64,000 nucleotides of DNA from Diadophis punctatus similis. Lineage: Eukaryota; Chordata; Lepidosauria; Squamata; Dipsadidae. A model generated the notes under the pieces. The model was not told the origin of the DNA, ran no database searches, and saw nothing but the letters and a program-made list of their open reading frames with translations. The translations under genes were made by a program, and so were the position numbers. This document shows, in pieces, positions 58-63,945 of the stretch (positions are counted from its first letter, which is position 1; every line of letters starts with the position of its first letter). The stretch covers positions 2,301,001 through 2,365,000 of the forward strand of contig JALIGW010000022.1 of assembly GCA_023053685.1 (NCBI GenBank). The letters run 5' to 3'.

Positions 58-93
58 AATGCTTTAAATAAAAACGATGTTGAAAAATTAACG
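58..93 (+). CDS. Micro-exon A1 (12 codons, phase 0-0)
   Basis: Encodes NALNKNDVEKLT. The acceptor is tttttatag and the donor gtaagtagc. Both other reading frames contain a stop, so phase 0 is fixed by this exon. It belongs to the class with consensus N-A-L-x4-[DE]-[IV]-x-K-L-[MT]. The upstream exons I and J of this unit are outside the window. Confidence 0.9.
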
Positions 94-725
94 GTAAGTA
101 GCTCTTTCTTCATTTTCTGCTTTTTCCCCCTTTTTTTGAGTAATATACTTCTTGCCTGCAATGAAGCATCTCTGTGTTATAAGAACACTGACCCCCAAAC
201 CAAATTCATTTGGTTGTATGTCTTTTCAGAATTGTCCCCAAGGAATCTTTGCCTTTGGGGAAGATTGTCCTGAACAATTTATTTCTCTCCCTGTAATTTC
301 TGTCCCTTTTTGGTGTGACTCATCTGGTGACTCACCTGTGTGGTCCAAATACAGTTTTGTTGGTCAGTTGGTGTATTTCATCATCTCCTTTTCCAGCCTC
401 TGTTTTACCAGGAAATGTAGAAAGGAGAAATAGGGATTTTTCAAACAATCCAAAAAATTATAATGAAACCTAAACTTTCTCTGGGTTACTCAGTCCACAT
501 TTTAGTGTTGTATAAACTTCATGCAACCCTCTTCTGTTGGCTACAAATTCAAGTGAATTTCTGGGGTTTGCATAATATATTAAATACTAAGGTGATAAAA
601 TAGTCTGCATTTCCACAATATAGTAAACAAAAAAACAAATAGATTAAAACTATCTAAAATTAGGAAGTTGTGCTGATGCAGTTATCATGTTATTCTTTTG
701 TCCTAGGATCTCATACTGTACAGAT

Positions 726-1024
726 CAGGGGTGGGTTCTAACTTACCTCGCCACTGGTTTGCTTCCTCCTGCGCCACGTGGGCGCGCGCGCATTGCATGC
801 CATACATGTGCATACGCAGTGCCAAAAACCAAGCTTCTGTGCATGCGCAGAAGCAAAAAACAGCTTCTGCGAGTGCGCAGAAGCAAAAAACAAGATGGCG
901 GCTCCTACGGTGCCGCCATTAGAGCCGGTTTGGGGGCATGGCCAACCGGCGATCACTCCCGGTTCGGCGAACGGGGGGGAATTCCCATTACCGGTTCTAT
1001 AGAACCGGGAGCAACCCAGCTCTG
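726..1024 (+). mobile_element. hAT-like MITE, family 1 (cagggGTGGGTTCTAAC type)
   Basis: Starts caggggtgggttctaac and ends with the imperfect inverse agcaacccagctctg. It is flanked by the perfect 8-bp duplication gtacagat (718-725 and 1025-1032). The interior has the family's hallmark CpG-rich blocks: repeated 'cttctgcgcatgcgcagaagcaaaaaacaa'-like stretches and an 'accggttctatagaaccgg' palindrome near the end. It is non-coding. It sits in the A1-B1 intron and is absent from the homologous introns of units 2 and 3, so it is younger than the unit duplication. Confidence 0.85.
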
Positions 1025-1250
1025 GTACAGATAGACCTTGACTTATGACATGACCTCAATATAGCCTGCCCATAATGGGCATACGTTGTGATAACCATAA
1101 ATTGGGTCACCCATGTGAGTGGCCTGGTTTTATGACCTTTTTTTGCGATGGTTTTATGACCTTTTTTGTGATGGTTGTCAAGAAATGCCTCAGTCACTAG
1201 GGCCGGTTTTGCCACAAACTGGAATGTGGTTTTCTGCAGAACTGTCCTAA
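1022..1250 (+). repeat. Old family-C repeat fragment (cagatagaccttgacttatgac)
   Basis: Fragment of the repeat seen complete at 12262-12662. The same fragment lies at the same place upstream of exons B2 (13605-13810) and B3 (51375-51750), so this insertion predates duplication of the 11-exon unit. Confidence 0.65.
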
Positions 1251-1318
1251 ATCAGGTTAGAGAAGTCACATGCGATTTCATGTGAGAATAGAAGCAATAT
1301 CTTTTGTTTTATTTACAG

Positions 1319-1357
1319 GACTGTATGGAAGACGAGTGTAAAATGGCTGATTTTTTG
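1319..1357 (+). CDS. Micro-exon B1 (13 codons, two cysteines)
   Basis: Encodes DCMEDECKMADFL after tttatttacag. The donor gtaaatatc is the B-class variant of gtaagtag. B exons are the only exons of the array that contain cysteine, always as C-x4-C. Inference: an intramolecular disulphide or a dimer contact. Confidence 0.9.
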
Positions 1358-2449
1358 GTAAATATCTCTTTGTTCCTCCTCTGTTCTTTCCTTCTGAAAT
1401 ATGCTCCTTCCATGTGATCAAGGACCCCTTTTGTGATTCCACTCCCACCCAAGTAACCATCTCCATTGTCCCCAGAGCCTCAAGAAAGAAGGCAAGGCTA
1501 AAATCTTGGGCCAGTTTTGATAAAGCAGCTTCAGGCACTGTTTTACTCCTTAAAACACACCCACCATTGCACTGCTGTAAAGCAGGGTGCCCTAAAATGA
1601 GGAAGGGTTGGGGAGATTATTCATTATTGTTGTTGTTTTTGTTGCCATTGTTAGTGTCGTTGATTCTAAATCTTGGCAACTTTAATATGTGTGGACTTCA
1701 ACCCCCAGAAGTCCCCAGCCAGCATGTAGCTGGGGATTTCTGGGAGTTATAGCTGTTATTAACCATATAACTCTAGCTCCAAACCCCAATGCCTATTTAC
1801 TTTGCTGTATGTGGCATCAAGGAGCTATAGAAATGATCTCCAGGAAAAATGTTTCACATTGGAAGGGTCCCTACAAAATTTCTTTTCTTTACTTGTGGTT
1901 CTTCTCTCTGCAAAATGTTAAATGCTTTTAACTCAACGATGAAGTCGAAATTGCACTCAAATTGAAGACTGAGTGGTAAAAAGAGAGTTTTAATATTCAG
2001 GTTGGGATATGGATTGTAGGGAAATTCAGCTCTGACCCTGAGAAAGGGAAGGAGAAGAAAATGATCGTTTAACTCTGTGTAAGTACAAGAGGTGAGAAAG
2101 GAAGTTAGACTCGCCTCAGCTTGACTTTCTTGTCCTTAAAAAGAAGTAATGATGGGCTTTCAAGATTCTGCTGTTAAATCTGACAACAACATAGTGGCAT
2201 TCCTGGAATCCCTGCCATGGCTTTCCTTGGCCTTGCCTACTTCAAAGAGTTGATATAGCTTTATATACTTTCTCTGCTGATGTGAGTGAGGTCTTTCACA
2301 TCAATATCCTCCATGGCCCTCCCCAGTTTATTTTAATGGACTGCAGGGGCCCAGGTAAGGCCCACCCAATTGCTGATATCATGTACTGGCATAGCATAGT
2401 TATGAAGGAATCCATAAAAGAGGATAAAGATTTTTCTCTTTTCTTGTAG

Positions 2450-2521
2450 GACCTCATGGAGAAGATGATATACTTTTTTAAGGGAATATCACATGGTGAT
2501 AAACCAATATATGACTTGATA
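2450..2521 (+). CDS. Micro-exon C1 (24 codons)
   Basis: The longest exon class (72 bp). It begins DLMEKM and ends ISHGDKPIYDLI, and is followed by gtaagtaga. The predicted segment is an amphipathic helix with an internal SHGDK turn. Upstream is the 'ccattcacatcaatatcctcc...cagtggcccagg' intron block shared with G exons, which suggests C and G are paralogous. Confidence 0.92.
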
Positions 2522-4417: not shown

Positions 4418-4456
4418 AAGGCACTTGTCAAACATGGTCCTCTGGCTGAATTGGTA
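4418..4456 (+). CDS. Micro-exon D1 (13 codons)
   Basis: Encodes KALVKHGPLAELV between tttcctttgtag and gtaagtaga. D2 and D3 keep the -GxLAELV end. A short predicted helix with HGP as a kink. Confidence 0.92.
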
Positions 4457-4883: not shown

Positions 4884-4919
4884 AATGAACTGAGTGAAAA
4901 ACATACATTGGAAATAATT
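4884..4919 (+). CDS. Micro-exon E1 (12 codons)
   Basis: Encodes NELSEKHTLEII between tttccactgcag and gtaagtagt. It is closely similar to J1 (NALSEEHTMKMV), which supports E and J being paralogous exon classes from an older half-unit duplication. Confidence 0.92.
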
Positions 4920-7392: not shown

Positions 7393-7578
<186 letters not shown>

Positions 7579-8875: not shown

Positions 8876-8911
8876 AATGCTTTGACTGCAAAAGAAATTG
8901 GAAAATTAATG
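8876..8911 (+). CDS. Micro-exon A'1 (12 codons)
   Basis: Encodes NALTAKEIGKLM, with donor gtaagtagc. It shares the NALxxxxIxKLM pattern and the downstream intron start 'ctcttttttcatcttctgcc' with class A. Confidence 0.92.
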
Positions 8912-9291: not shown

Positions 9292-9330
9292 AATATAGGC
9301 AAACGTCCAATTAATATTTTTGCGTTAATT
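9292..9330 (+). CDS. Micro-exon F1 (13 codons)
   Basis: Encodes NIGKRPINIFALI, with acceptor ccccttatag and donor gtaagtata. This is the most variable class: F1 and F2 differ at 9 of 13 residues while the flanking intron stays alignable. Confidence 0.88.
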
Positions 9331-9793: not shown

Positions 9794-9862
9794 TCAATCG
9801 GAAAAAAGATAATACCTATTCTCAAGAAAGCCAATGGTGGCAAAGGAGTGTCTAAACTGATA
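9794..9862 (+). CDS. Micro-exon G1 (23 codons, strongly basic)
   Basis: Begins SIGKKIIPILKK and ends GGKGVSKLI. It has six Lys and no acidic residue, with a GG hinge. It resembles a cationic amphipathic peptide in composition only. Acceptor ccttttag, donor gtaagtaga. Confidence 0.93.
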
Positions 9863-10009: not shown

Positions 10010-10042
10010 AGTATATTCACTGGTGGTGGAGATGGAAACACG
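10010..10042 (+). CDS. Micro-exon H1 (11 codons)
   Basis: Encodes SIFTGGGDGNT between cccattttag and gtaagtagg. A flexible Gly/Asp-rich segment that directly follows the basic G segment. Confidence 0.9.
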
Positions 10043-10294: not shown

Positions 10295-10327
10295 GAAAAT
10301 AGCAATGATATGTTGGAAAAAATTATG
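10295..10327 (+). CDS. Micro-exon I1 (11 codons)
   Basis: Encodes ENSNDMLEKIM, with donor gtaagtagt. It is preceded by the conserved 'gttggagaagtca...tgag..cagactcatacccttcatttcctttgtag' block. It starts the second unit; the intron from H1 is only 252 bp. Confidence 0.92.
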
Positions 10328-10969: not shown

Positions 10970-11005
10970 AATGCACTGAGTGAGGAACATACAATGAAAA
11001 TGGTC
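10970..11005 (+). CDS. Micro-exon J1 (12 codons)
   Basis: Encodes NALSEEHTMKMV between ttccattgtag and gtaagtaga. Its sequence is close to class E. Confidence 0.92.
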
Positions 11006-12955: not shown

Positions 12956-12991
12956 AACGCTTTCAATGCACAGGATGTTGAGAAATTAACG
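12956..12991 (+). CDS. Micro-exon A2 (12 codons)
   Basis: Encodes NAFNAQDVEKLT, with donor gtaagtagc. It differs from A1 at 5 codons: two are synonymous and three change the residue. Flanking introns of A1 and A2 remain alignable for hundreds of bases. Confidence 0.92.
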
Positions 12992-13871: not shown

Positions 13872-13910
13872 GACTGTCTAGAAGGCGAGTGTAAAATGGC
13901 TGATTCTGTG
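13872..13910 (+). CDS. Micro-exon B2 (13 codons, two cysteines)
   Basis: Encodes DCLEGECKMADSV, with donor gtaaatacc. The C-x4-C spacing is kept. All four codons that differ from B1 change the residue. Confidence 0.92.
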
Positions 13911-14852: not shown

Positions 14853-14924
14853 AACCTCATGGAGAAGATGTTAAATGTTCTTAAGGGAATATCACATGGT
14901 GATAAACTGATATATAACTTGATA
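14853..14924 (+). CDS. Micro-exon C2 (24 codons)
   Basis: Begins NLMEKMLNVLKG and ends HGDKLIYNLI, followed by gtaagtaga. Seven codons differ from C1 and every one is a replacement. Predicted amphipathic helix. Confidence 0.93.
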
Positions 14925-15451: not shown

Positions 15452-15490
15452 AAGGAACTCTTCAAACATGGTCCTCTGGCTGAATTGGTG
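15452..15490 (+). CDS. Micro-exon D2 (13 codons)
   Basis: Encodes KELFKHGPLAELV, with donor gtaagtagt. The intron to E2 is only 128 bp, against 427 bp in unit 1 and 1.05 kb in unit 3, so an intron deletion happened here without loss of either exon. Confidence 0.93.
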
Positions 15491-15618: not shown

Positions 15619-15654
15619 AATGAACTGAGTGAGGAATATACATTGGAAATAATT
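15619..15654 (+). CDS. Micro-exon E2 (12 codons)
   Basis: Encodes NELSEEYTLEII between tctcccttacag and gtaagtagc. Confidence 0.93.
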
Positions 15655-16892: not shown

Positions 16893-16928
16893 AATGCTTT
16901 GAATGGAAAAGACATTGATAAATTAATG
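16893..16928 (+). CDS. Micro-exon A'2 (12 codons)
   Basis: Encodes NALNGKDIDKLM, with donor gtaagtagc. Four codons differ from A'1 and all are replacements. Confidence 0.93.
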
Positions 16929-19342: not shown

Positions 19343-19844
19343 CAGCTCTTCTAAAACTACACATTCAACCTCACTTACTGCATTTGGAAAAACACAACCA
19401 GAGTCCACTTTCTGTCACACATTTAACCATAACTTCTGTACATTAGAACATTACACATGCCTTCAGATGTTCTTCCCTAGCTTGCACATGACTGTTAGAG
19501 CCAAGAAATGTCATGGATTGAGTAAAATGTGGTGAAACTCACTTAACAATGCTCTTGTTTAGCAACCAAAATTTTGGGCTCAATTGTGGTCATAAGTCAA
19601 GGACTATCTCTGCCTTCCTCTGCATGGAAGCCTTGTCCTAGTAAACTCCTTCTCCTTTCTGGCAATTTTCCTCTCTGTTAGAGGGACCAAAATAATCCAG
19701 ATAATGTAAGGTTTCCTGCTGCAACACGGGGTTGGACTAGATGACCTCCGAGATATCTTCCAGCCCTAAATTGCTGTGCTGTTTCAAAGTGTCTTCTGAA
19801 GCCACATCTAGTGGCAGGGTTTGTGGTGCTTCCTTCCTCTTCTT

Positions 19845-20302
<458 letters not shown>

Positions 20303-20509
20303 AATACCCTATATGAGCCCTACTGATTTATATAAGTGGATTTTATTCATTTTTTTAGTTTAGGTCAGGAGTCAGCAACCTTAAACACTCAAAGAGCCAT
20401 TTGGACCCATTTTCCACAGAAAACAAAACACTGAAAGCCACAAAACCTGGGTGGGCATGGCCAACCCGACATCACGCACTCCCATCCAGTCACATGAACC
20501 TCCTTCACA

Positions 20510-20995
20510 TCCTTTCCTTCCTTCCTTCCTTCCTTCCTTCCTTCCTTCCTTCCTTCCTTCCTTCCTTCCTTCCTTCCTTCCATCCTCCCTCCTGATTTTA
20601 TCTTCCTTCCTTTCTTCCCCCTCCTCTGATTTTATCTTCCTTCCCCCTCTTTTCACCTTCCTTCCTTCCCCCTGATTTTACCTTCCTTCCCTCCTTTCAT
20701 CTGTCTTCCTTCCCCTTCCTGATTTTACCTTCCTTCCCCCTCCTTTCACCTTCCTTCCTTCCCCTTCCTCTGATTTTACCTTTCTTCCCCCCTTTCACCT
20801 CCCTTCCTTCCCCCCTCCTCTGAATTTTACCTTCCTTCCTCCCTCCCTCCCTCCCTCCCTCCTCTTTCTCTCCCTTCCTTCCTTTCTCTTTCTCTTTCTC
20901 TCTCTCTCTCTTTCTCTTTCTCTTTCTCTTTCTTTCTCCCTTCCCTTCCCCCCCTCTCCCTCCCTCCCTCCCCCTTCCCCCCCTCTCTCTCACAC
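20510..20995. repeat. (CCTT)n and degenerate pyrimidine repeat
   Basis: About 70 bp of perfect CCTT units, then imperfect 'cccctcctctgattttaccttccttc' repeats of about 35-45 bp, then CT/CCCT stretches. Confidence 0.9.
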
Positions 20996-22509: not shown

Positions 22510-22548
22510 AATATAGGTCAAAGTCGAGTTAAAAAATCTGAGATAATA
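22510..22548 (+). CDS. Micro-exon F2 (13 codons)
   Basis: Encodes NIGQSRVKKSEII, with donor gtaagtaga. It is highly diverged from F1 but keeps the NIG start, frame and splice sites. Confidence 0.9.
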
Positions 22549-23339: not shown

Positions 23340-23408
23340 TCAATCGGAAAAAAGATAATACCTATTATCAAGAAAGCTAAGGGTGGCAAAGGAGTGTCTA
23401 AACTGATG
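23340..23408 (+). CDS. Micro-exon G2 (23 codons, strongly basic)
   Basis: Begins SIGKKIIPIIKKAKGG and ends KGVSKLM. Net charge is about +7 with no acidic residue. The donor is gtaagttaa, slightly off the array consensus. Confidence 0.93.
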
Positions 23409-30105: not shown

Positions 30106-30138
30106 AGTATATTCACTGATGATGAAGATGGAAAAACT
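30106..30138 (+). CDS. Micro-exon H2 (11 codons), last array exon of copy 1
   Basis: Encodes SIFTDDEDGKT, with donor gtaagtagc. Intron homology with H1 persists for about 130 bp beyond the donor, then the galectin locus begins. No following I exon is present, unlike after H1 and H3. The exon that completes copy 1 was not identified. Confidence 0.9.
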
Positions 30139-30976: not shown

Positions 30977-31065
30977 GGTCTCCATTATTATCAACATGTC
31001 CATGGCGGACTCCATCCTGGGATGTCTGTATATATGCAAGGCACAGTGCCCAAACACAGCAACAG
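30977..31065 (+). CDS. Galectin-4-like CRD exon, copy 1 (89 bp)
   Basis: In phase 0 it reads GLHYYQHVHGGLHPGMSVYM and continues QGTVPKHSN. This matches the YYQ-IPGGL-GMSVYIQG start of galectin-4 N-CRDs. The length of 89 bp is the usual galectin CRD first-exon length. Acceptor tcttccag, donor gtaagg. Confidence 0.85.
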
Positions 31066-31466: not shown

Positions 31467-31677
31467 AACCTGGGTGAACTTGCAGGTGGACTTTGCCTGT
31501 GGTCAGCACAAGGAGGCTGATGTTCCCCTCCACTTCAGGTCTCACATTAATGAAGAGACAGTTGGGCTCAACACACTTCAGGCTGGCAGGTGGGGAAAGG
31601 AAGAGAAACACACAAGTTCCTTCCAAACAGGCGAGCAATTCGAGGTCATCTTGATTGTCCATGATTTCGGATACCAG
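31467..31677 (+). CDS. Galectin CRD core exon, copy 1 (211 bp), binding site degraded
   Basis: Contains VDFACGQHKEADVPLHF, VGLNTLQAGRWGKEEKH and GEQFEVILIVHDFGYQ. The canonical H-x-N-P-R is HFRSH, so the key Asn and Arg are lost. The W-G-x-E-E is kept. Loss of lactose binding is expected. The donor gttggt is shared with copy 2. Confidence 0.85.
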
Positions 31678-36821: not shown

Positions 36822-36947
36822 GTCCTGGTGAATAGGCAGGCCTTATGCGACTATTGGCACAAAATCCCTCCACAAAACATCCAGGTCATTAGGATTGATG
36901 GAGACCTGGAACTGCAATCTCTGTCTGTAATGGGAGGACCAGTGATG
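36822..36947 (+). CDS. Galectin CRD third exon, copy 1 (126 bp)
   Basis: Reads VLVNRQALCDYWHKIP and IRIDGDLELQSLSVMGGPVM in phase 0. This corresponds to the VVVNG-xxFxxxHRLP and VDGDLQLQSI segments of galectin-4. The usual NG is NR here. Donor gtaagt, acceptor ccctctgacag. Confidence 0.85.
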
Positions 36948-37423: not shown

Positions 37424-37612
37424 GAGCTGTGGTGTGGCACAGTGATTAGAATGCAATATTGCAGGCTGACTCTGCCCACTGCCAGGAGTTCAATCCGGAG
37501 TGGCTCAAGGTTGACTCAGCCTTCCATCCTTCCGAGGTCGGTAAAATGAGGACCCAGACTGTTGGGGGCAATAGGCTGACACTGTAAACAGCTTAGAGAG
37601 GGGCTGTAAAGC
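37424..37612 (+). mobile_element. Squamate SINE, 3'-truncated
   Basis: 'gagctgtggtgtggcacagtg' head and 'ttgactcagccttccatccttccgagg' body, ending at 'gtaaagctcac'. It lies downstream of copy 1, where homology with the second galectin copy stops. Confidence 0.8.
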
Positions 37613-38210
37613 TCACATTGTTTGTGCCCCTCAAGTGCCACTTCCTGCCTCAGCCTTTGAAGGCAGCACAGCCACCTCTTACCCTAAACGATGCCCCAGT
37701 TAGAATTTTTATGGTGTTCATTTCCTGCTGCTGATTGGTCCTACAGACAGGATTCAGATGTTTGCTAGGCACATCTCCGTTGCCTGGTTGTTCCTTGGGA
37801 AAGTTCAGGGGAAATGCAAGGGGTGAGAACATTGTCTGATCTGTTATTAGAACTCCCATCATCCTGTATGTGATCTGGGCTGGTAAAAATTCTGGAACTT
37901 GAGGGCCAGGTTAGCCTGGGTGGGGAGCTGCCCATGGGAGGTGGCCCATGGGACTTACCTATCTTGTCCAGGAGATGCTGAGGTCTCAATACAGTTGGTG
38001 AATGGTGTGGCCTCTACCTGTCCCCCATAGAGCTAAAGCAGAACCGGTCCATGGCTACAGTTCTGGTGCTTCCTCCAGCCTTCCTTCCCTGCCACGTTGG
38101 GGGAATTAATCCTTACAGAGGCCCTCCCTGGAGGTCTTTAGTTGACTCAGAACCTCGTGGAAAGGCTGATACAAGGCACAGGTTGTAGTTGGCAAGTTTG
38201 AAAGTCAAAA

Positions 38211-38603
38211 TGTCAAGTTTGACACGTGCTCATGCTGTTGCAGCCATTATTGCTTCTCAACTTGCCAATCATCAAAGGGGGAGGGGGGAGGAAGATTGGA
38301 ATGTCAGTGCCAGACAACAACAGGAAACCGTCTCATGGGAAGCAAGGTCATTTCAACAGGTGTTTGACAGAGCAATGGACATCTTCTCACAATACTTCTA
38401 CACCTAATTGGACAATGTGACCTGCACTAATGGGGGGAGGGAAAGTTCTATACTTTATCTATACGGGACACGTGGGAATTAGCTAGAGCTGGTTTTGCTT
38501 TCATGCTGTGCTGAAATGATGTACCCAATAAAGTTTTGCATTAAGAGATTGGATCATCTCAACTTTGCTGGCTTGATTGGGTTCGTCAGTCAGAACCTTG
38601 ACA
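38211..38603 (+). mobile_element. Solo LTR, family A (393 bp)
   Basis: Starts TGTCAAGTTTGAC and ends AACCTTGACA, flanked by caaaa (38206-38210) and caaag (38604-38608). Poly(A) signal AATAAA at 38527-38532. It is the same length as the inverted copy at 43658-44050. It interrupts sequence homologous between the two galectin copies, so it inserted after that duplication, about 55 bp upstream of the CRD first exon of copy 2. Confidence 0.9.
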
Positions 38604-38658
38604 CAAAGTTCTGTTTTACAATAGCCATTGGTTTGGTTCATCATTTTCTGTCTTCCAG

Positions 38659-38747
38659 ACTCTCCCTTACCATCATCCTGTCTCTGATGGACTCCATCCT
38701 GGAATGTCTGTATATGTGCGAGGCAAAGTGCTCAGAAACTGCCACAG
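38659..38747 (+). CDS. LGALS4: Galectin N-CRD first exon, copy 2 (89 bp)
   Basis: In phase 0 it reads TLPYHHPVSDGLHPGMSVYV then RGKVLRNCH. This matches galectin-4's TLPYYQPIPGGL-GMSVYIQG. Acceptor tcttccag, donor gtaatg, same length as copy 1. Confidence 0.88.
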
Positions 38748-39071
38748 GTAATGTTCCTTTGGGGGTTCACAGGAAGTGCAAGATTACTCAAAACAATAGT
38801 GATAAGATTATCATGTTGTTAAGGGAAGGTTAAATAATTCTATGCCAAGATTAAAGTCTTCCTTAATTCTTTGGATAGTTCTACTTCCTGCTTCTTCCAA
38901 CTACAACTAAGAATAATGACTAGGAACTTGATTCTTCTCTTCAAGCAAAAACCCAGCATCCTGTAGATTTTAGTTTCAGGGCAAAGGAGAAAGGGGGAAT
39001 GCGACTTCTACTTTGAGATTCCTGCCCCTCCCATTTAATATTCTTCTTCCCTTTTCCTCTCTTCCTTCCAG

Positions 39072-39270
39072 GTTCAACCTGGACTTTTCCTGTGGCAAAT
39101 TTGACGAGGCCGACATTCTCTTCCACTTCAACCCTCGCTTTGGTCAGGGGTGTGTTGTGCTCAACACATATCAGTCTCGCAGGTGGGGAAAGGAAGAGAG
39201 ACACCAGAATCCCTTCCGGAAGGGCGAGCATTTTGAGATCATCTTCATTGTCAATGAGGCCGAATACCAG
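39072..39270 (+). CDS. LGALS4: Galectin N-CRD core exon, copy 2 (199 bp), binding site intact
   Basis: Contains FNLDFSCGKFDEADILFHF followed by NPRF, then VVLNTYQSRRWGKEERH and NPFRKGEHFEIIFIVN. All sugar-binding positions (H-N-R, V-N, W-E-R) are present. It is 12 bp shorter than copy 1 at its 5' edge. Confidence 0.92.
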
Positions 39271-39852
39271 GTTGGTACATGTGACAGAGGCTCCTTTAGG
39301 ACTGCAGGAGCCTCTTCATCCCCCCTCCCCAAATTCACTATTTGTCTAGAATGAACCACAAATGTATTTAATACTGACTTTCTCAACATCATATCTTCCA
39401 GATAAGGTTTAAGTGATGTGCAAGCAGTCCTTGCTTAGCAATAATGGGACCAGCAACTTAGTTATTAATGGGATCAAAAACATGGCTGTTTTTATTGGAC
39501 TTCAGCTTTTCTTTGCTTTGCAATCCGGTGAAGGTTGTAAATGCCAGGACTAGTTGCGACGTTACTATTTCATCAGTGTCCTAACTGCTAACAGTCACTA
39601 AATGAGGACGTCCTGCTGCAGAATGGAAAAACTTTTGGTCCGGGGAGGAGGAAAATAGATATCAGTGGAATGAAGGACTCTCCCTTTTTAAATGTATTCA
39701 TTTTAACCCTTTTGATTCCCCCAATGACTCTGCTTACTCTGCTCAGCTTTAGGGTGGGATGTGTTCCTGGCAAGAATAAACAGGTTTTTCCTGTAAAGAA
39801 AATGGGGTGATCCCAATTGAGATTTGATCCTTTCAACTTTACCCTCTGACAG

Positions 39853-39987
39853 ATCCTAGTAAATGGGAACCCCTTCTGCAAGTTCGGGCACAGAATCCCA
39901 CCCCAATTTCTAAAGTTCATTAACCTTAATGGAAACCTGGAGTTTCAATCTCTGACCATGGTGAGAGGACAAATAGTGGAGAACATG
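39853..39987 (+). CDS. LGALS4: Galectin N-CRD third exon, copy 2 (135 bp)
   Basis: Reads ILVNGNPFCKFGHRIPPQF and NLNGNLEFQSLTMVRG. The donor GT at 39988 is followed after gtaag by a MITE. An upstream in-frame alternative donor ATG|gtgaga exists at 39961. Confidence 0.88.
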
Positions 39988-39992
39988 GTAAG

Positions 39993-40172
39993 CAGTAGTG
40001 CGTTTCACTTGCCTTCACTACCAGTTCACTATTGTGTGTGTGTGCATGGGAGTGTGTGTGCATGCGTGCCGCTTCTGCACATGCGCAGAAACGTCCGGGC
40101 GGGTGGGCGGAGCCTCCCGCCACCGCTACCGGTTTGCCCAATCTGGGACGAACCGCTAGCAACCCACCACTG
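39993..40172 (+). mobile_element. hAT-like MITE inserted at +6 of a galectin splice donor
   Basis: Starts cagtagtgcgtttcac and ends agcaacccaccactg, flanked by atggtaag (39985-39992) and atagtaag (40173-40180), a 7/8 match. The target was the splice donor itself, so a second donor-like agtaagtg now lies at the far end. Confidence 0.85.
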
Positions 40173-40232
40173 ATAGTAAGTGTTTGCTATCAACCCTTGA
40201 TCACTTTTTAGGAATACATACTGGGTTGGTTC

Positions 40233-40485
40233 CAGTGGTGAAATCCATTTTTTTACTACCGGTTCTGTGGGCGTGGCTTGGTGGGCTTGGTGTGGCTTGG
40301 TGGGCATGGCAGGGGAAGGATACTGCAAAATCCCCATTCCCTCTCTACTCCTGGGGGAAGGATATTGAAAAATCTCCATTTCCACCCCACCAGCCACAGG
40401 TGGTATTTGCCGGTTCTCCGAACTACTCAAAGTTTCCACTACCGGTTCTCCAGAACCTGTCAGAACCTGCTAGATTTCACCCCTG
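40233..40485 (+). mobile_element. hAT-like MITE (cagtggtgaaatcc)
   Basis: Termini cagtggtgaaatcca and agatttcacccctg, with the perfect 8-bp duplication gttggttc (40225-40232 and 40486-40493). 'accggttct' blocks at both ends link it to family 1. Confidence 0.92.
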
Positions 40486-40788
40486 GTTGGTTCAATCCCC
40501 AAGTTGTCACGTTCTCTTTCTCCCCTCCAGTCATTCTTCTCAAACATTTTTCTTAACCGTTAAGAATTGCGGCCCCTTTTGGTCCTCAGTTGTCTTGGCT
40601 TACAACTCTGCAAGCAAGGAAAAATAAAATAAAAAATCCTACAGCAAGGCTAGGACCCGCAACTGCACAGGGAGCAGTTTTACCCCAGGCCAAGGTCCTG
40701 CTCTCCCCTTTGCAACTGTCCATGAAGCAGAGTTTCTTAACCTGGCAACTTTAAGATGTGGGGCCTCAACTCCCAGAATGGCTTAGGA

Positions 40789-41172
40789 CAGTGATGGCGA
40801 ACCTTTTTTTGTTCGCGTGCCAAAAGGGGGGGGGGAATGTGGGGGATCACATGTGTGCGTGCCCACACTCATAATTCCATGCACCCCCGCACATGCATGC
40901 ATGACCCCCCCTGCTCCCAGCATGCAATGGCACGCCCATTTTTCGCTCTCCCCAGGCTCCAGAGCCTTTCTAGGAGCCTGGGGAGGGCGAAAACGGCCTT
41001 CCCCACCCCCTCTGGAGGCTGGAAACAGCCTGTTTCCCGACTCCCAGTGGGCCCAGAAGGCCCGAAAATCAGCCAGCTGGTGCACACATGCACGCCGGAC
41101 TGAGCTCGCGTGCCCACCGATATGGCTCCGCGTGCCACTTGTGGCACCCGTGCCATAGGTTCGCCATCACGG
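40789..41172 (+). mobile_element. hAT-like MITE (cagtgatggcgaacc)
   Basis: Termini cagtgatggcgaacc and ggttcgccatcacgg, with the perfect 8-bp duplication gcttagga (40781-40788 and 41173-41180). Confidence 0.92.
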
Positions 41173-41278
41173 GCTTAGGAGATGCCCACTCATCCTTATT
41201 AACAAACACCAACAGCCAAGAAGTGTGCAATGGCTGAATACAGTTTTTAACACCTTCTTTGTATTTCTCTCCCATCAG

Positions 41279-41308
41279 CTGCTGACAGGCTCTGCAGTCT
41301 ACTACCCA
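41279..41308 (+). CDS. LGALS4: Galectin linker micro-exon (30 bp)
   Basis: Encodes LLTGSAVYYP between ctcccatcag and gtaagtatc, phase 0-0. It would place a short Tyr/Pro linker between the CRDs, as in galectin-4, where the linker is longer. The copy-1 duplication stops just before this position. Confidence 0.7.
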
Positions 41309-42372: not shown

Positions 42373-42461
42373 CCAGTGCCCTACACAGGCAACATTCCTG
42401 GAGGTATGGGAACCAACAGGACCATCACAGTGCGAGGCTTTATTCTGAAGAATGCTACCAG
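42373..42461 (+). CDS. LGALS4: Galectin C-CRD first exon (89 bp)
   Basis: Reads PVPYTGNIPGGMGTNRTITV then RGFILKNAT, matching the PVPY-GGL-TI-I-G start of galectin-4 C-CRDs. Acceptor atatttcag. The donor gtttcg is weak, so the exon end rests on the galectin exon length and phase. Confidence 0.85.
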
Positions 42462-43165
42462 GTTTCGGGTCTCTCTCTTTTTTTGTGTTTTTTGTTTTGC
42501 AGGGCTGGTTTGGATTTGGCATGGCAAAATATCAGTGTTAGGGCCTGTTGTAGACCTTTCTTGGTTGATCCCCTTTCTCTGACTCTTTCATCTCCTCTGT
42601 ACATCCACAGGGTCAACCCAGAGGACAAGGAGGTGAAGGGGAGTGGAAGCAAAATTCCACATGTAGTCTTTGGAACTCACTGCCACAAGAAGAAGCAAGG
42701 GCGGTTAGCTAAGGGCAGAGTTCCCCAAAGGGGGACATCTGACATGTCATGAAAGGATTGACGAATTGTTTAGGGAACTCTAGCTAAGGAGGTGGCTATA
42801 AAGAATGATTAGGACCGGAATAGTCCATTAAGCAGCTTCAGCTGTTCTTCATTAGAAGAATGCTACTCACTACTAGACTGCTGCTGAATATACATTCTTT
42901 TTTCATATGTCTCACTTATTGCTCACAAAAAGTTGGTTTGATGGTGGCAGAACATAAATGCAACGAATAAATACCTAAAATGATAAAACATTCAGCAACA
43001 AAGAGGACAAAAAGCTTTTTAAATTTTCTTTTAGCCTTCCCCCATGGAGGGATCTGTCAGGCTGCCATTGGATTAAGGGGCCCGGGGGGTGGGGGTGGAA
43101 TCAGATTTCCTTTTATTTATTCCAAGATCTAGTCTTCAATGCCTGCTTTTTTTTCTCTTTCCAAG

Positions 43166-43328
43166 CTTTGAAATCAATTTAATGGCTAGCCAGAATATTG
43201 CTCTGCACCTTAATTCACGCATGAAACCACGGAGATATGTGGTGCGCAACACTTGTCTGAATGGCAGGTGGGGAGCTGAGGAAACTGATCTGTCCTTTAA
43301 CCCTTTCCAATTCGGGCAATACTTTGAG
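43166..43328 (+). CDS. LGALS4: Galectin C-CRD core exon (163 bp)
   Basis: Contains NIALHLNSRM, YVVRNTCLNGRWGAEETD and NPFQFGQYFE. The motif is H-x-N-S-R with Ser for Pro, and W-G-x-E-E-T where the last Arg/Lys is Thr, so specificity may be altered. Donor gtgagt. Confidence 0.9.
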
Positions 43329-44282: not shown

Positions 44283-44429
44283 GTCTCAATCTGCTGTGAC
44301 AAAAAAAAGTTCAAGGTTTATTCCAGCGGCCGTCACCTGTTCAACTTTAACCATCGTTATGCCACTATTGGACGCATCCGCACTCTCAAGATCAAAGGAG
44401 ACTTGACCCTTTCCTATATCAAGTATTAA
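44283..44429 (+). CDS. LGALS4: Galectin C-CRD terminal exon with stop
   Basis: Reads VSICCDKKKFKVYSSGRHLF, then NFNHRYATIGRIRTLKIKGD and LTLSYIKY, stop TAA at 44427-44429. This corresponds to galectin-4's FKVYANGQHLFDFAHR and GDVTLSY ends. Acceptor ctcttcccag. Confidence 0.93.
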   Translation, partial: VSICCDKKKFKVYSSGRHLFNFNHRYATIGRIRTLKIKGDLTLSYIKY

Positions 44430-46936: not shown

Positions 46937-46987
46937 ATGCATCTCCTTTTAATCTTCGCTTTGACTTTTACGCTTTCTGCACAGCAG
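46937..46987 (+). CDS. Signal-peptide exon (17 codons), start of copy 2
   Basis: Encodes MHLLLIFALTFTLSAQQ: a short n-region, a hydrophobic core of about 11 residues and a likely cleavage after LSA. It ends CAG|gtgaga in phase 0, matching every downstream micro-exon. ATG chosen as the first in-frame Met; the context GGAGATGC is acceptable. Confidence 0.85.
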
Positions 46988-47724
46988 GTGAGACTGAATT
47001 TGGTGGGTTTCAATAGCCTTTCAGCTGGGGTGCCTGAAGATGAAATTAGCATTTTGTTGAGCTCTTCTTCCTTCTTTAACACATTTCTTCATGAATGGAT
47101 TGAAAAATCAGGCAGAGGGCTTTGAGTACTCGGTCTTTTAATGATCGGGAATTCAACTCTTATCAGTGGTTCTGGATTCAGGTTTTGCATCCTGTTCTCT
47201 GCATTAGCTTTCTCGGTATTCACATTATCCTGAGAGTCAGAGATAACTGACTTTTGTTGGACCTACTGAGTTGGACCAATATAAAATGCTGAAAGTTTCT
47301 TTGGTTGGAAAGTTATAAGTTAACTGTGCACGGTATAAGAAGAGTTTAAGATGAATAAAAATAAGGGACAGAGCAAAATGCACAGGTTCATTGGCACCTA
47401 AGGTGCATATTGTGTGTGGTTTATATTACCTGAAAATGTCTAAGGAAGCTTAATGTTTGATATTTAATTGACATATGGTATCAAGGCTTATTTGTGGTTG
47501 GGTGAATGTGGAAGAATATTGAAAAGAGAAAGGAAAGATAAAAAGGTCTCAGAACTTTATTAATTCAAGTTTGGGGGTTTGGCCCACTTTTAGTAAAAAA
47601 AAAAGTGTTTTCTATGTGGAGAAATGCAGTCATTCAATGTGTTCTATTTAGTGATGGAACCGTCGGAGAAGTCATATATGTTATCATGTAAGGATCAGAC
47701 TGATACCCTTCATTTCCCTTGTAG

Positions 47725-47757
47725 GAAAGCGGCAGTGAAATGATGATAAAAGCTATG
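47725..47757 (+). CDS. Micro-exon I3 (11 codons)
   Basis: Encodes ESGSEMMIKAM, with donor gtaagtagt. Preceded by the conserved 'gtcggagaagtcatatatgttatcatg' block. First exon after the signal peptide. Confidence 0.93.
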
Positions 47758-48371: not shown

Positions 48372-48407
48372 AATGCAATTGATGAGGAGGGTCGAGAACA
48401 AGTGATC
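48372..48407 (+). CDS. Micro-exon J3 (12 codons)
   Basis: Encodes NAIDEEGREQVI between tttccattgcag and gtaagtagt. Confidence 0.93.
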
Positions 48408-50799: not shown

Positions 50800-50835
50800 A
50801 GTTCTTTGAATGAAAAAGATCTAACGAAATTAATG
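50800..50835 (+). CDS. Micro-exon A3 (12 codons)
   Basis: Encodes SSLNEKDLTKLM, with donor gtaagtagc. A longer open frame (50806-51048) arises by reading on into the intron and is not a separate gene. Confidence 0.92.
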
Positions 50836-52195: not shown

Positions 52196-52234
52196 GATTG
52201 TGTAGAAAGTGTGTGTGAAACGACTGATTTCACA
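52196..52234 (+). CDS. Micro-exon B3 (13 codons, two cysteines)
   Basis: Encodes DCVESVCETTDFT, with donor gtaagtacc. C-x4-C kept although most other residues changed. Confidence 0.92.
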
Positions 52235-54297: not shown

Positions 54298-54369
54298 GAC
54301 CTCATGGAGAAGATGTTAAATGTCCTTAAGGGAATATTACATGGTGATAAACTGATATATAAATTGATG
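54298..54369 (+). CDS. Micro-exon C3 (24 codons)
   Basis: Begins DLMEKMLNVLKGI and ends LHGDKLIYKLM, followed by gtaagtaga. Preceded by the shared C/G intron block. Confidence 0.93.
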
Positions 54370-55038: not shown

Positions 55039-55077
55039 AAGGAACTCTTCAAACAAGGTCGTCTGGCTGAATTGGTA
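55039..55077 (+). CDS. Micro-exon D3 (13 codons)
   Basis: Encodes KELFKQGRLAELV, with donor gtaagtagc. Confidence 0.93.
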
Positions 55078-56128: not shown

Positions 56129-56164
56129 AATGGACTAAGTAAGGAATATACATTGGAAATAATT
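56129..56164 (+). CDS. Micro-exon E3 (12 codons)
   Basis: Encodes NGLSKEYTLEII, with donor gtaagtatc. A SINE sits only 21 bp downstream of the exon. Confidence 0.92.
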
Positions 56165-57094: not shown

Positions 57095-57130
57095 AATGCT
57101 TTGGAAGCAAAAGACATTGGAAAATTAATA
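57095..57130 (+). CDS. Micro-exon A'3 (12 codons)
   Basis: Encodes NALEAKDIGKLI, with donor gtaagtacc. Confidence 0.92.
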
Positions 57131-58048: not shown

Positions 58049-58087
58049 AATATGAATATAGGTCAAGATAATAGTTCCAAGTCAATG
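58049..58087 (+). CDS. Micro-exon F3 (13 codons)
   Basis: Encodes NMNIGQDNSSKSM, with donor gtaagtaga. Contains an N-S-S sequon. The variable F class differs again from F1 and F2. Confidence 0.9.
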
Positions 58088-59304: not shown

Positions 59305-59373
59305 TCAATCGGAAAAAAGATAATACCTATCATCAAGAGAGCTAAGGGTGGCAAAGGATTGTCTAAACTGATG
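59305..59373 (+). CDS. Micro-exon G3 (23 codons, strongly basic)
   Basis: Begins SIGKKIIPIIKRAKGG and ends KGLSKLM, with donor gtaagtaga. Net charge is about +7 and no acidic residue. The best conserved class across the three units. Confidence 0.93.
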
Positions 59374-60413: not shown

Positions 60414-60446
60414 ATTATGTTTATGGTTGATGGAAATGTAAAAGGG
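60414..60446 (+). CDS. Micro-exon H3 (11 codons)
   Basis: Encodes IMFMVDGNVKG, with donor gtaagtagc. Frame and splice sites are kept although nearly all residues differ from H1 and H2. Confidence 0.88.
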
Positions 60447-61564: not shown

Positions 61565-62336
61565 TGTCTTTTGCAGGCAACTTAGTGCCAGCCACGGTCC
61601 CCTTCGTGTCGGCTCAGGAAGGAGGGGAACGGGCAGGAGCAGCTGCTGCCGCTGGAGGCAGGGAGGGAAGAGCTCCAGCTCCCCGCCGGAGCTCTTCCCT
61701 CCTTGTATCCAGCAGCAGAACTGCTCCTGCCCGTTCCCCTTCTTCCTGAGCTGACATGAAGGGGACCGTGGCTGGCCCTGAGCTGCCCGCAAAGGATACG
61801 GAATCACAAAAAGCAGCCTGTCATGGGCAGTGCAGAGAAAATGCTAGGAGCACTGCAGCTTGCGCCTTCTCAGGGCAGAGAGCATGTTGCATGACAGGGT
61901 GGGCAGGGAGACATAGAGGAACAATCCACATCACTAAAAAAAATCCACATCACTAAAAAAAAGCCATAAGGGGTGGGAGAGATGCACGTCTCCCAGCGGG
62001 GCGCAATTTGGGGGTGCAGATGGGGCGGGAGGGCCGCGAAACACGCATCTTACTGGAGACTGGCAGCTCCGGGTCATCTCTCAGCCATTGTGTGCAGGGA
62101 AAAACTTTGCACAGTAAAGTCTTTACTGTGAGTGCTACAAACCCAGCTTCTGTGCATATGCAGAAGAAAAAAACCACAGCTTCTGCATGTGCGCAGAAGC
62201 AAAAAACAAGATGGCGACGCCTATGGCCAGTTTGGGGGCCTGTCCAGCTGCCCTTCGCTGCCAGTTCGGTGAGCAGGGGGAAATTCCTGCTATCGGTTCT
62301 ATAGAACCGGTCCGAACCAGCAGGAACCCACCTCTG
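61565..62336. repeat. GC-rich region with long hairpin and family-1 MITE end
   Basis: An inverted repeat of about 110-bp arms (about 61565-61676 and 61688-61800) around an 11-bp loop. It is followed to 62336 by family-1 sequence ending 'accggtccgaaccagcaggaacccacctctg'. The same order as in 33650-35167. Confidence 0.65.
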
Positions 62337-63102
62337 AATGATGGTGAACCTTTTGCTGTTGGCCTCTCCACAATTTGGAAAATGCCTATCTTGACTCTGT
62401 TGGGTGTCATCATCTCCCCTGAATACGAGAGAAATGATTCTCTCTCTGCTCCTTCCATCTGGGCCACCCTGAACAGTGGCAATCTGAAAATGAAAGAGAT
62501 AGATAGAGAAAGAAAGAAAGGGGGGGGGGTCGGAGAGAGAGACGATTAGGGTCAAGATTAAAATACTATTCTCTCCTATATCTTATAATGTATTTAAAAA
62601 TATTATTTATATTTTAATTAAAAATCTACAATACAAGGTAATAAATGAAAAAAAGAAAAGAAAAATAGTATAGAAATTGCATGACTAAATAAATACATTA
62701 ATTAAAAAAGAAGTGGAAAAAACCCCAAAACATCGCAGAACACTGTTAATTCAGATTTGGTTTTTTAGCTTTAGCCCTTTCTGTTTTGATAAGAAATGTG
62801 TGTTTCCTAATTAAAGGGAAACAGTAATTCATGTATATGGTATGTAAGTTGGCAGTGATAACATGGGTAGAGTAGGAAGATCCTGGTGTCCTGAATCCTC
62901 AGGTTTCTTTATGCGTATTGTGGTTGTGTGAGTGTGGAAGAATATTGAAAAGAGAAAGGAAAGATAAAAAGGACTCCGAACGTTTATTAATTCATGTTTG
63001 GGTTTTTTGGCCCTGTCACTCCCTCTTCTAGTAAGAAATATGTGTTTCCTACATGGAGAATGCAGCCAGTTATATGCGTGTTATCTACTGATGGAACAGT
63101 TG

Positions 63103-63161
63103 GAGAAGTCATATATGTTATCATGTGAATATCAGACTGATACCCTTTATTTTCTTTATAG
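63103..63161 (+). promoter_or_regulatory. Conserved pre-exon intron block (representative copy, I4)
   Basis: 'gttggagaagtcatatatg...atcatgtga...gactgatacccttt...' up to the AG. Related blocks precede I1, I3, J1, J3, J4, E2, E3, B1-B3 and F1-F3. The invariant 'ctgatac' about 30 bp before the AG fits a branch-point consensus. Confidence 0.6.
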
Positions 63162-63194
63162 GAAAATGGCAGTGAAATGATGAAAAAAGTTATG
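63162..63194 (+). CDS. Micro-exon I4 (11 codons)
   Basis: Encodes ENGSEMMKKVM, with donor gtaagtaat. Starts another 11-exon unit after H3, proving that the I-to-H order repeats within copy 2. Contains an N-G-S sequon. Confidence 0.92.
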
Positions 63195-63909
63195 GTAAGT
63201 AATTCATTGTTTATCTTGGGCTCTTTTATGAACTCAAAATCTTTCTCAGGGTTATTTTGTTAGCTACTTAGTGTTATGGAGCTCATGGAACGCACATATC
63301 CTGGCTGCTAATTCATTTCTGTGGTTTGCATAATACAATAAATGCTAAAATGAGGAAATAACCTGTTCTCACCCAACTCAGTAAAGCACAAAATAATGTA
63401 TAAAAATCTAACTCGGATTACTACAGACCAAATTTGGGGTGCTGTGCCAGTGCAGCTGTTAGGGTTTTTATTGATGTGGTTAGATAACTACGGTAGCATG
63501 AATCTAGGTTCACATATGAAATGAAGATATAGTGGATAATCCAGAACAGCTATAGCCTCAAGAGATATGCATATTAAAGCAGCAGTCCCCAACCTTTGTG
63601 ACTTGGTGGCCCAGCTGGACGGGGGGAGAGATGGCAACTGGGCTGCAGGCCGGAATGCATGTACGCGAGGGCCTGCCAGTCTGCTGCTCATGGAAGTTGA
63701 GCTGCGCACATGCAATTCTGAATAGGCCATAGCCCAGTAGTGGGCTGCAGCCCAAGGGTTGGGAATTCCTGTATTAAAGGACTGACCCGTTCCTATCTGA
63801 AGGAGGACGGAATTCATTTTTATTATATTTGAAATAGCAGACATAACATGGTTGGAGAAGATATGTTGTCATGTGAGAATAGAGTTGATACCCTTTGTTT
63901 CCACTGCAG

Positions 63910-63945
63910 AATGCAATTGGTGAGCAAGGTCAAGAACAAATAATG
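63910..63945 (+). CDS. Micro-exon J4 (12 codons)
   Basis: Encodes NAIGEQGQEQIM between tttccactgcag and gtaagtagt. The next exon (A4) would lie beyond the window. Confidence 0.92.

What the first reader, a model, noticed from the sequence alone, without database searches (positions are those of the whole stretch)
58..63945. A symmetric micro-exon gene family in a reptile genome
Seen: 33 exons of 33-72 bp, every one a multiple of 3, every one open in phase 0, each with AG acceptor and near-consensus U1 donor (mostly gtaagtag), plus a 51-bp signal-peptide exon also ending in phase 0. Known: schistosome micro-exon genes (MEGs) have this architecture (short symmetric exons, secreted product), but I know of no such vertebrate family with these modules. 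Inference: a secreted modular protein whose exons can be skipped in any combination without frameshift. I do not recognise the protein.
Basis: partly seen in the sequence, partly recalled or inferred. Interest (0 to 1): 0.95.

Follow-up and report, generated by a model that had tools for sequence, protein, structure and literature searches.

The report
Snake secreted galectin with micro-exon stalk
This stretch of snake DNA holds two neighbouring copies of an undescribed-looking gene family in which dozens of tiny exons, roughly one short helix each, build a stalk behind a secretion signal; in the first copy, and in related snake proteins, the stalk is joined to three or more sugar-binding galectin domains.

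Summary
The window holds 33 micro-exons (33-72 bp, all multiples of 3, all open in phase 0, AG/GT) plus a 51-bp signal-peptide exon. A mechanical scan finds 34 such exons on the + strand (32 of the 33 plus 2 strays), 0 on the - strand and 0.23 per resampled window. Gene 1 runs on, in phase, into ten further exons encoding three galectin domains and a stop codon. The joined conceptual product matches snake gene models: Crotalus 77% and Vipera 76% over 100%, Pantherophis 84% over 86%, with the same micro-exon modules in the same order. So it is a galectin-4-type lectin with an ER signal and a predicted-helical micro-exon stalk. A published survey says deuterostome galectins typically lack such a signal (PMC10343441). 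Stalk identity to orthologues exceeds that of the lectin domain in 10 of 11 comparisons. Splicing, tissue and function are unproven. By sequence it is not a schistosome MEG; the gene architecture is alike. Eight galectin-related paper searches listed no description of the family.

The parts
58..93 (+). gene 1 micro-exon A1 (cycle 1) NALNKNDVEKLT
1319..1357 (+). gene 1 micro-exon A2 DCMEDECKMADFL
2450..2521 (+). gene 1 micro-exon A3 (72 bp)
4418..4456 (+). gene 1 micro-exon A4
4884..4919 (+). gene 1 micro-exon A5
8876..8911 (+). gene 1 micro-exon A1'
9292..9330 (+). gene 1 micro-exon B2
9794..9862 (+). gene 1 micro-exon A3' (69 bp)
10010..10042 (+). gene 1 micro-exon B4 (end of cycle 1)
10295..10327 (+). 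gene 1 micro-exon B5 (start of cycle 2)
10970..11005 (+). gene 1 micro-exon A5'
12956..12991 (+). gene 1 micro-exon A1 (cycle 2)
13872..13910 (+). gene 1 micro-exon A2
14853..14924 (+). gene 1 micro-exon A3
15452..15490 (+). gene 1 micro-exon A4
15619..15654 (+). gene 1 micro-exon A5
16893..16928 (+). gene 1 micro-exon A1' (module absent from the P0002 and P0004 gene models)
22510..22548 (+). gene 1 micro-exon B2
23340..23408 (+). gene 1 micro-exon A3'
30106..30138 (+). gene 1 last micro-exon B4 SIFTDDEDGKT
30977..31065 (+). gene 1 galectin CRD1 exon 1 (89 bp, starts in phase 0)
31467..31677 (+). CRD1 middle exon, 211 bp, long N-type
   Evidence: exon rule PMC10343441
36822..36947 (+). CRD1 exon 3
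38659..38747 (+). CRD2 exon 1 (89 bp)
39072..39270 (+). CRD2 middle exon, 199 bp, with the canonical sugar-binding residues
39853..39987 (+). CRD2 exon 3
41279..41308 (+). 30-bp linker micro-exon LLTGSAVYYP
42373..42461 (+). CRD3 exon 1 (89 bp); weak donor gtttcg
42609..42710 (+). probable alternative last exon: matches the C-terminus of the Pantherophis model P0003, 88%, 8e-14; the frame stays open a little beyond 42710
43166..43328 (+). CRD3 middle exon, 163 bp, short C-type
44283..44429 (+). CRD3 last exon with stop codon; AATAAA/ATTAAA-type signal at 44550
46937..46987 (+). gene 2 start codon and signal-peptide exon, 51 bp
47725..47757 (+). gene 2 micro-exon B5
48372..48407 (+). gene 2 micro-exon A5'
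50800..50835 (+). gene 2 micro-exon A1
52196..52234 (+). gene 2 micro-exon A2
54298..54369 (+). gene 2 micro-exon A3
55039..55077 (+). gene 2 micro-exon A4
56129..56164 (+). gene 2 micro-exon A5
57095..57130 (+). gene 2 micro-exon A1'
58049..58087 (+). gene 2 micro-exon B2
59305..59373 (+). gene 2 micro-exon A3'
60414..60446 (+). gene 2 micro-exon B4 IMFMVDGNVKG (the one exon of 44 without any tblastn hit)
   Evidence: (no hit)
63162..63194 (+). micro-exon B5, second cycle of gene 2 or start of a further gene
63910..63945 (+). micro-exon A5', same remark; the window ends here

Best explanation
The window carries two tandem copies of a snake gene family that encodes secreted, multi-domain galectin-4-type lectins with an N-terminal stalk made from serially duplicated micro-exons. 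SHOWN by sequence: gene 1 (58-44429; by comparison with P0001 about four 5' exons lie before the window) reads in one open phase through 20 micro-exons, CRD1, CRD2, a 10-residue linker exon and CRD3 to a stop codon. Gene 2 begins at 46937 with a signal peptide and runs off the window. The same fused architecture exists as gene models in other snakes. INFERRED: the signal peptide sends the protein through the ER, unlike ordinary vertebrate galectins. Each 12-residue exon supplies about one short helix, so the tandem exons build a rod, bundle or superhelix of short helices, about 156 residues per 11-exon cycle, that holds and probably multimerises the lectin head. The head cross-links beta-galactoside glycans, with CRD2 as the canonical site and CRD1 and CRD3 altered, in an external secretion such as mucus, gut lumen, skin or oral fluid. 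Symmetric exons let modules be gained, lost or skipped without frameshift, so stalk length can evolve or be spliced in whole-module steps.
For: One open frame of 714 codons across 30 exons. Galectin PF00337 three times, E 3.3e-103. Matches over 86-100% of the product in the Crotalus, Vipera, Pantherophis and Erythrolamprus models; the stalk of P0001 parses into signal + x + the 22 modules of two cycles, gene 1 having the last 20 in order. The last CRD groups with galectin-4 C-CRD (support 1.0) and the others lie with its N-CRD, matching long/long/short middle exons of 211/199/163 bp and the published rule. Stalk identity to four orthologues 0.79-0.88, higher than the intact CRDs (0.69-0.82) in 10 of 11 comparisons. 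Three N-linked sequons in gene 1. AF2 predicts an all-helical stalk; in 8 of 8 twelve-residue modules of P0001 the helix starts at module residue 5.
Against: No RNA or protein data were available: splicing, secretion and sugar binding are untested. Homologues are database gene models, some fragmentary (P0011 and P0017 start inside a CRD, P0016 has no stalk). Only 7 of 17 snake models show the signal exon. Single short exons are weakly detectable by tblastn: 28 of 44 at E<=0.1, 23 at E<=0.01. AF2 confidence is low (mean pLDDT 61.6 and 69.2, pTM 0.31 and 0.33). The CRD3 exon-1 donor is weak (gtttcg), and the Pantherophis model ends in an alternative exon that truncates CRD3. dN/dS between paralogous modules in the window is 0.99. 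The 5'-most exons of gene 1 and any lectin exons of gene 2 are outside the window, so no gene is seen whole here.
Confidence: 0.8

Rival explanations
1. Two unrelated neighbouring genes: a secreted micro-exon gene that ends before 30977, and an ordinary cytosolic tandem-repeat galectin with its own start.
For: Deuterostome galectins typically have no signal peptide (PMC10343441). Three of 17 snake models are galectins without a recognised stalk (P0011, P0016, P0017). Sequence alone does not exclude it: the 838-bp gap holds 7 ATG-to-GT stretches and 4 acceptor-to-stop stretches that would fit in phase, as chance would also give.
Against: Models from three genera (P0001, P0002, P0003) join signal, stalk and CRDs in one protein with the window's module order, apart from one absent module in P0002; P0005, P0006, P0010 and P0013 also join signal, stalk and CRDs, and P0004 joins stalk and CRDs. 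The last micro-exon and CRD1 exon 1 meet in phase 0. Gene 2 restarts with a signal exon only after the galectin stop codon.
Confidence: 0.06
2. The micro-exons are mainly a splicing-diversity device: skipping of symmetric modules yields many stalk variants, as proposed for schistosome MEGs (recalled).
For: All phases are 0. Cycle-2 A1' is missing from P0002 and P0004; A5 is missing from P0006; P0015 has a short stalk. Isoform labels (X1, X2, -T2, -T3) appear on eight models.
Against: P0001 and P0003 keep every module in the same order and the stalk is conserved at 0.79-0.88; a diversity device need not conserve each module. The isoforms themselves were not seen.
Confidence: 0.25
3. The stalk is a membrane-active or antimicrobial helical segment aimed by the lectin head at microbial or prey glycans, rather than a structural spacer.
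For: Cationic amphipathic-looking modules (SIGKKIIPIIKKAKGGKGVSKLM); a sub-threshold Pfam match of one A3 module to the pleurocidin family (E 0.0085, 16.3 bits against a cut-off of 22).
Against: Other modules are acidic or neutral. The match is one of 13 weak ones up to E 1 for that protein. No processing sites were examined.
Confidence: 0.15
4. A decayed or non-expressed array: exon-like relics kept by recent duplication.
For: Paralogous modules in the window differ with dN/dS 0.99, and exon divergence (pS 0.195, pN 0.194) is not far below flanking intron divergence (0.236, itself lowered because pairs at 0.45 or more were dropped). Introns hold many repeats.
Against: 0 of 33 micro-exons has a stop or broken splice dinucleotide; neutral simulation expects 4.3-5.6 exons with stops at K 0.20-0.283 (none in 0.25-1% of runs; none in 8% at K 0.10). 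The exons were chosen partly for being intact, which weakens this, but profile searches showed no further copy at E below 0.4. Orthologous models are open and conserved.
Confidence: 0.03

Closest known systems
Galectin-4 (LGALS4), tandem-repeat galectin of vertebrates
   Same: CRD1/CRD2 lie with its N-CRD and CRD3 with its C-CRD in a tree with one rodent galectin-4 as reference; best single-CRD PDB sequence matches are galectin-4 N (145 bits) and C (136 bits) domains; the exon pattern long, long, short fits the tandem-repeat rule.
   Different: Three CRDs here (three to five in the snake models that look complete) instead of two; ER signal peptide; a 289-residue micro-exon stalk visible in the window; tandem gene copies.
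Galectin-3 (chimera type: N-terminal self-association tail plus one CRD; recalled)
   Same: An N-terminal non-lectin region that may multimerise a C-terminal lectin.
   Different: That tail is Pro/Gly-rich and disordered (recalled) and has no signal; here the tail is predicted helical and built from micro-exons.
Schistosome micro-exon genes (MEGs; features recalled, only listings seen)
   Same: Many short symmetric internal exons behind a signal-peptide exon.
   Different: No sequence relation turned up; here the stalk is followed by lectin exons of ordinary size; vertebrate.
Aphid bicycle genes (PMC9168663, passages read)
   Same: N-terminal signal sequences, many unusually small internal exons nearly all of one phase, fast-evolving family.
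   Different: Bicycle exons are phase 2 with CYC motifs; here phase 0 with galectin domains.
Sponge galectins with a Sec signal (PMC10343441, section 3.3 read)
   Same: A galectin domain behind a classical signal peptide.
   Different: One CRD encoded by one exon, no stalk.
Frog glue galectins (PMC11237159, abstract and passages read)
   Same: A galectin, sister to galectin-9, abundant in an external secretion where it binds a glycoprotein and is proposed to cross-link it; a functional model for what the snake proteins might do.
   Different: galectin-Dg1 is a 145-residue single-CRD protein; no stalk is described in the passages seen.

Membership tests
Galectin family (PF00337) | Galactoside-binding lectin domain | tested here: met
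   E 3.3e-103, three stretches; the CRDs of the AF2 model of the relative P0001 match galectin-4 crystal domains with TM 0.86-0.95 to the target in the rows shown
Galectin family (PF00337) | Conserved sugar-binding residues H, N, R, V-x-N, W, E, R (signature recalled) | tested here: met
   All present in CRD2 (HFNPRFGQGCVVLNTYQSRRWGKEER); CRD1 has HFRSH and K for the last R, CRD3 has T for the last R: altered in two of three
Galectin family (PF00337) | No classical secretion signal (typical for deuterostomes, PMC10343441) | tested here: not met
   Signal exon in gene 2 of the window (judged by eye, no SignalP run) and in 7 of 17 snake models; typical, not a strict criterion
Galectin-4 / tandem-repeat galectin | N-type CRD with long and C-type CRD with short middle exon | tested here: met
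   211 and 199 bp against 163 bp; tree split support 1.0
Galectin-4 / tandem-repeat galectin | Exactly two CRDs | tested here: not met
   Three CRDs in gene 1
Galectin-4 / tandem-repeat galectin | Synteny with HNRNPL, ECH1, ACTN4, RYR1 (PMC10343441) | not testable with these tools
   Neighbouring DNA could not be reached: the genome search did not complete
Micro-exon gene in the schistosome sense | Many short symmetric exons plus signal exon | tested here: met
   33 exons of 33-72 bp, all multiples of 3, plus 51-bp signal exon
Micro-exon gene in the schistosome sense | Sequence relation to a MEG family | tested here: not met
   No such protein among 18 hits, 10 and 8, nor any Pfam family above its cut-off for the stalk; the searches are word-limited and no MEG was compared directly
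Micro-exon gene in the schistosome sense | Alternative splicing of micro-exons in mRNA | not testable with these tools
   No RNA data

The most novel reading that the evidence does not exclude
Advanced snakes have evolved a vertebrate counterpart of micro-exon genes: a multicopy family of ER-secreted galectins whose stalk was built by serial duplication of one short exon encoding about one helix, so that stalk length and valency change in whole-module steps by exon gain, loss and alternative splicing, giving a tunable secreted glycan-cross-linking system.
Probability: 0.4. Interest if true: 0.85.

Novelty: new variant of a known kind. Interest (0 to 1): 0.72.

Why it matters
Vertebrate galectins are the textbook lectins that leave cells without a signal peptide. 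A snake lineage that gave galectin-4-type lectins an ER signal, extra sugar-binding domains and a long helical stalk departs from that rule and offers a natural experiment on what a galectin does in the secretory pathway. The stalk also shows, in readable form, how a protein region can be made by repeating one tiny symmetric exon, about one helix per exon, a gene architecture known from parasite and insect effector genes; the searches made here listed no vertebrate case.

Tried and rejected
Schistosome-MEG homology: no such hit; no MEG was compared directly. Structural RNA in the window: 0 matches at gathering thresholds. A known fold for the stalk: PDB sequence search gave 14 weak rows, best endoplasmin at E 0.0016, judged chance; no Pfam family reaches its cut-off, the best being MgtE_N (E 0.0044 and 0.0022, 18-19 bits against 25.9). 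The database's own annotation does put MgtE_N (PF03448) on one relative, P0003. That domain is a superhelix of short helices (recalled), so a likeness of fold is possible but not shown. Foldseek of the full P0001 model returned galectins in all 50 rows shown (1289 matches in all); the second AF2 model was not searched because its stalk is low-confidence and galectins would dominate. Stalk outside snakes: not found (10 hits up to E 1 among 7999 scored; 8 hits among 513), but one search also missed P0005, P0006, P0007, P0013 and P0014, which carry stalk modules, so absence elsewhere is not shown. Leader exon 'x' of gene 2: no + strand tblastn match within 46988-47724 up to E 20. tblastn of the 17 snake proteins first looked better than it is: 43 of 44 exons are hit at E<=20, but with 328 off-exon matches; at E<=0.1 it is 28 of 44 with 7 off-exon matches, including the alternative last exon and one low-identity hit that I judge an artefact of linked scoring. 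Idea that micro-exons evolve faster than introns: not supported overall (pS 0.195, pN 0.194, intron 0.236; intron pairs with divergence of 0.45 or more, or 50 or fewer aligned bases, were dropped), though B2, A5', B4, A1' and B5 have pN above pS. Literature: ten searches, eight on galectins or the locus names and two on micro-exon genes. No listed paper describes the family and none holds the six locus names (0 papers), but listings were partial (10 of 33 papers, 25 of 553) and the library lacks most subscription journals and preprints.

Full report
What was claimed and whether it is there. I recovered all of them: lengths 33-72 bp, all multiples of three, open in phase 0, AG/GT borders, 25 of 33 donors gtaagtag. 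The + strand has 25 GTAAGTAG sites in all, the - strand 1. A fixed scan gives 34 on +, 0 on - and 0.23 per first-order resample; 32 of the 34 are listed exons, one listed exon (58-93) fails the rule and two hits are strays. The pattern is real.

Order and origin. The exons fall into classes in a fixed order: B5, A5', A1, A2, A3, A4, A5, A1', B2, A3', B4. That is 11 exons and 156 residues per cycle. A profile of the A1/A1' class with 40-bp flanks matches 29 of the 33 exons at E<=1 and nothing else in the window on either strand; three of the other seven profiles gave five off-exon matches at E 0.43-0.96. The classes therefore look like serial duplicates of one ancestral exon plus its intron edges.

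What follows the micro-exons. After the last micro-exon of gene 1 (30106-30138) come exons encoding three galectin domains: CRD1 (30977-31065, 31467-31677, 36822-36947), CRD2 (38659-38747, 39072-39270, 39853-39987), a 30-bp linker exon (41279-41308) and CRD3 (42373-42461, 43166-43328, 44283-44429 with stop). All phases agree, giving one open product of 714 residues. Pfam finds Gal-bind_lectin three times (E 3.3e-103). A polyadenylation-type hexamer lies 121 bp after the stop. About 2.5 kb further on, gene 2 opens with the signal exon (46937) and has 13 micro-exons before the window ends. The finding is thus two tandem genes, the first cut at its 5' end and the second at its 3' end.

Independent confirmation. 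The gene 1 product has 18 hits among 7991 scored candidates; 17 are snake proteins and one is a Peromyscus galectin-4. Crotalus tigris LOC120317141 (77% over 100%), Vipera latastei M6D78_012926 (76% over 100%), Pantherophis guttatus LOC117677717 (84% over 86%) and an Erythrolamprus reginae protein (75% over 98%) have the same fused layout; the Erythrolamprus model lacks the 5' end and the Pantherophis model a complete CRD3. Parsed into window modules, P0001 reads signal, x, then two full cycles, then CRDs; gene 1 holds the last 20 of its 22 cycle modules in order, so signal, x, B5 and A5' should lie upstream of the window. Stalk modules were recognised in 14 of 17 snake models (not P0011, P0016, P0017) and the signal exon in 7 of 17; the parser also made a few spurious assignments inside CRDs, which I did not count. 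Module by module, tblastn is weak because the exons are short: 28 of 44 exons at E<=0.1, 43 at E<=20 where chance matches abound. Gene 2 is closest to Pantherophis LOC117677719 (stalk 129 of 150 identical).

Kind of galectin. In a FastTree of CRDs the last CRDs group with the C-terminal CRD of the rodent galectin-4 (support 1.0) and the others lie with its N-terminal CRD. This fits the exon rule of PMC10343441 (section 3.3 read): long middle exon in N-type CRDs, short in C-type; here 211 and 199 against 163 bp. Against PDB sequences the best single domains are galectin-4 N (145 bits) and C (136 bits); the best overall is two-domain galectin-8 (180 bits). CRD2 keeps all sugar-contact residues of the recalled signature; CRD1 carries HFRSH in place of HFNPR and K for the last R; CRD3 carries T for the last R. 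The HxRSH form of CRD1 is shared by P0001, P0002 and P0003.

Selection. Orthologue identity of the stalk is 0.82, 0.84, 0.88 and 0.79 against P0001-P0004. CRD1 and CRD2 give 0.69-0.82; CRD3 gives 0.73, 0.73 and 0.81, P0003 being left out for CRD3 (0.28) because its CRD3 is truncated. The stalk exceeds the CRD in 10 of these 11 comparisons, the exception being CRD3 of P0004. Each cycle of gene 1 matches its positional counterpart in Crotalus and Pantherophis (104-118 of 132-133 identical) better than the two cycles match each other in the window (95 of 133) or across positions between species (85-91 of 130-133), so the cycle duplication is probably older than the split of these lineages. Between paralogous modules in the window dN/dS is 0.99; yet no stop or broken splice site occurs, where neutral simulation expects 4.3-5.6 exons with stops at K 0.20-0.283, none being seen in 0.25-1% of runs (8% at K 0.10). 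I read this as diversification after duplication with function kept; a direct orthologue dN/dS could not be done for lack of DNA.

Structure. AlphaFold2 of P0001 with 14 relatives predicts an all-helical stalk and beta-rich CRDs at low confidence (mean pLDDT 61.6, pTM 0.31); a second model from P0010 with 13 relatives agrees on helices (69.2, 0.33). In all 8 twelve-residue modules (A5', A1, A5, A1', two cycles) a helix begins at residue 5 and runs 0 to 4 residues into the next module. The longer A3 and A3' modules hold two helix centres, A2, B2 and B4 none, so 'one helix per exon' is an average. 18 of 22 internal module borders lie inside helices, against 65% of neighbouring residue pairs in the stalk as a whole. 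No solved structure resembles the stalk convincingly by sequence. The best sub-threshold Pfam match is MgtE_N, which the database also lists for P0003; this may hint at a superhelix of short helices.

Mechanism. Shown: architecture, phases, family, conservation. Inferred: entry into the ER by the signal peptide (judged by eye and by its recurrence in 7 models, not by a predictor); glycosylation at sequons such as NRT in CRD1 and NRT and NAT in CRD3; a helical stalk that spaces or multimerises the lectin head; cross-linking of galactosides in an external secretion. Frog skin glue, where a secreted galectin binds a glycoprotein, is a precedent for the last step (PMC11237159, passages read). The tissue is unknown. 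Gut or another mucosa is my guess from galectin-4 biology (recalled).

Variation of modules. P0002 and P0004 lack the A1' module of cycle 2, P0006 lacks A5, and P0005 has a differently built stalk and five CRDs. An alternative last exon at 42609-42710 matches the C-terminus of the Pantherophis model P0003 (88%, 8e-14); it would end the protein inside CRD3. Whether these are splice forms, losses or annotation differences cannot be told here.

Is the fusion certain? Not from the window alone. The 838-bp gap between B4 and CRD1 contains 7 ATG-to-GT stretches and 4 acceptor-to-stop stretches in a fitting phase, as any such gap would. The case for one gene rests on the gene models of other snakes and on the signal exon of gene 2 standing right after the galectin stop of gene 1.

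Novelty. PMC10343441 states that deuterostome and bivalve galectins typically lack a classical secretion signal. The snake proteins exist in databases as 'uncharacterized protein' or 'galectin-4/6/9-like'. Of ten literature searches, eight concerned galectins or the locus names; none of the listings shows a paper on the family (listings partial). The habu genome paper excluded galectin as a keyword false positive for 'lectin' (one passage read). I therefore rate it a new variant of a known kind, not a new kind.

Limits. No transcript, no whole genome (genome search did not complete), no eukaryotic DNA collection, protein searches capped at three and word-limited. Presence outside advanced snakes is open.

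Noticed in passing
63162-63945: Two more micro-exons (B5, A5') follow gene 2's B4 with no galectin exon recognised between, whereas the Pantherophis counterpart P0008 goes from B4 over 11 residues to a CRD. Either gene 2 has a second cycle or another gene starts here.
   Followed up: partly
42609-42710: Alternative last exon conserved in Pantherophis (88%), which would truncate CRD3; the competing CRD3 exon-1 donor is weak (gtttcg).
   Followed up: partly
30977-41220: CRD1 and CRD2 with stretches of their introns and flanks look by eye like a tandem duplicate; CRD1 has lost the canonical HFNPR motif and shows HxRSH in three other snakes.
   Followed up: partly
   Followed up: partly
P0018 (Peromyscus galectin-4 isoform X3): A rodent model with precomputed PF00378 and PF16113 domains (enoyl-CoA hydratase type, names recalled) besides galectin; ECH1 is a listed LGALS4 neighbour, so probably a read-through or merged model.
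   Followed up: no
37280-37420 and 40720-40791: Intron-like stretches match the C-terminal tail of the Thamnophis model P0015 (E 1e-5 and 0.004, with stops), suggesting that model ends in intron sequence.
   Followed up: no
7393-7532, 19840-20990, 33402-33648: Long simple repeats, (AT)70, CT-rich tracts and CTTTTT, inside introns; several interspersed repeats resembling SINEs in the introns (by eye).
   Followed up: no
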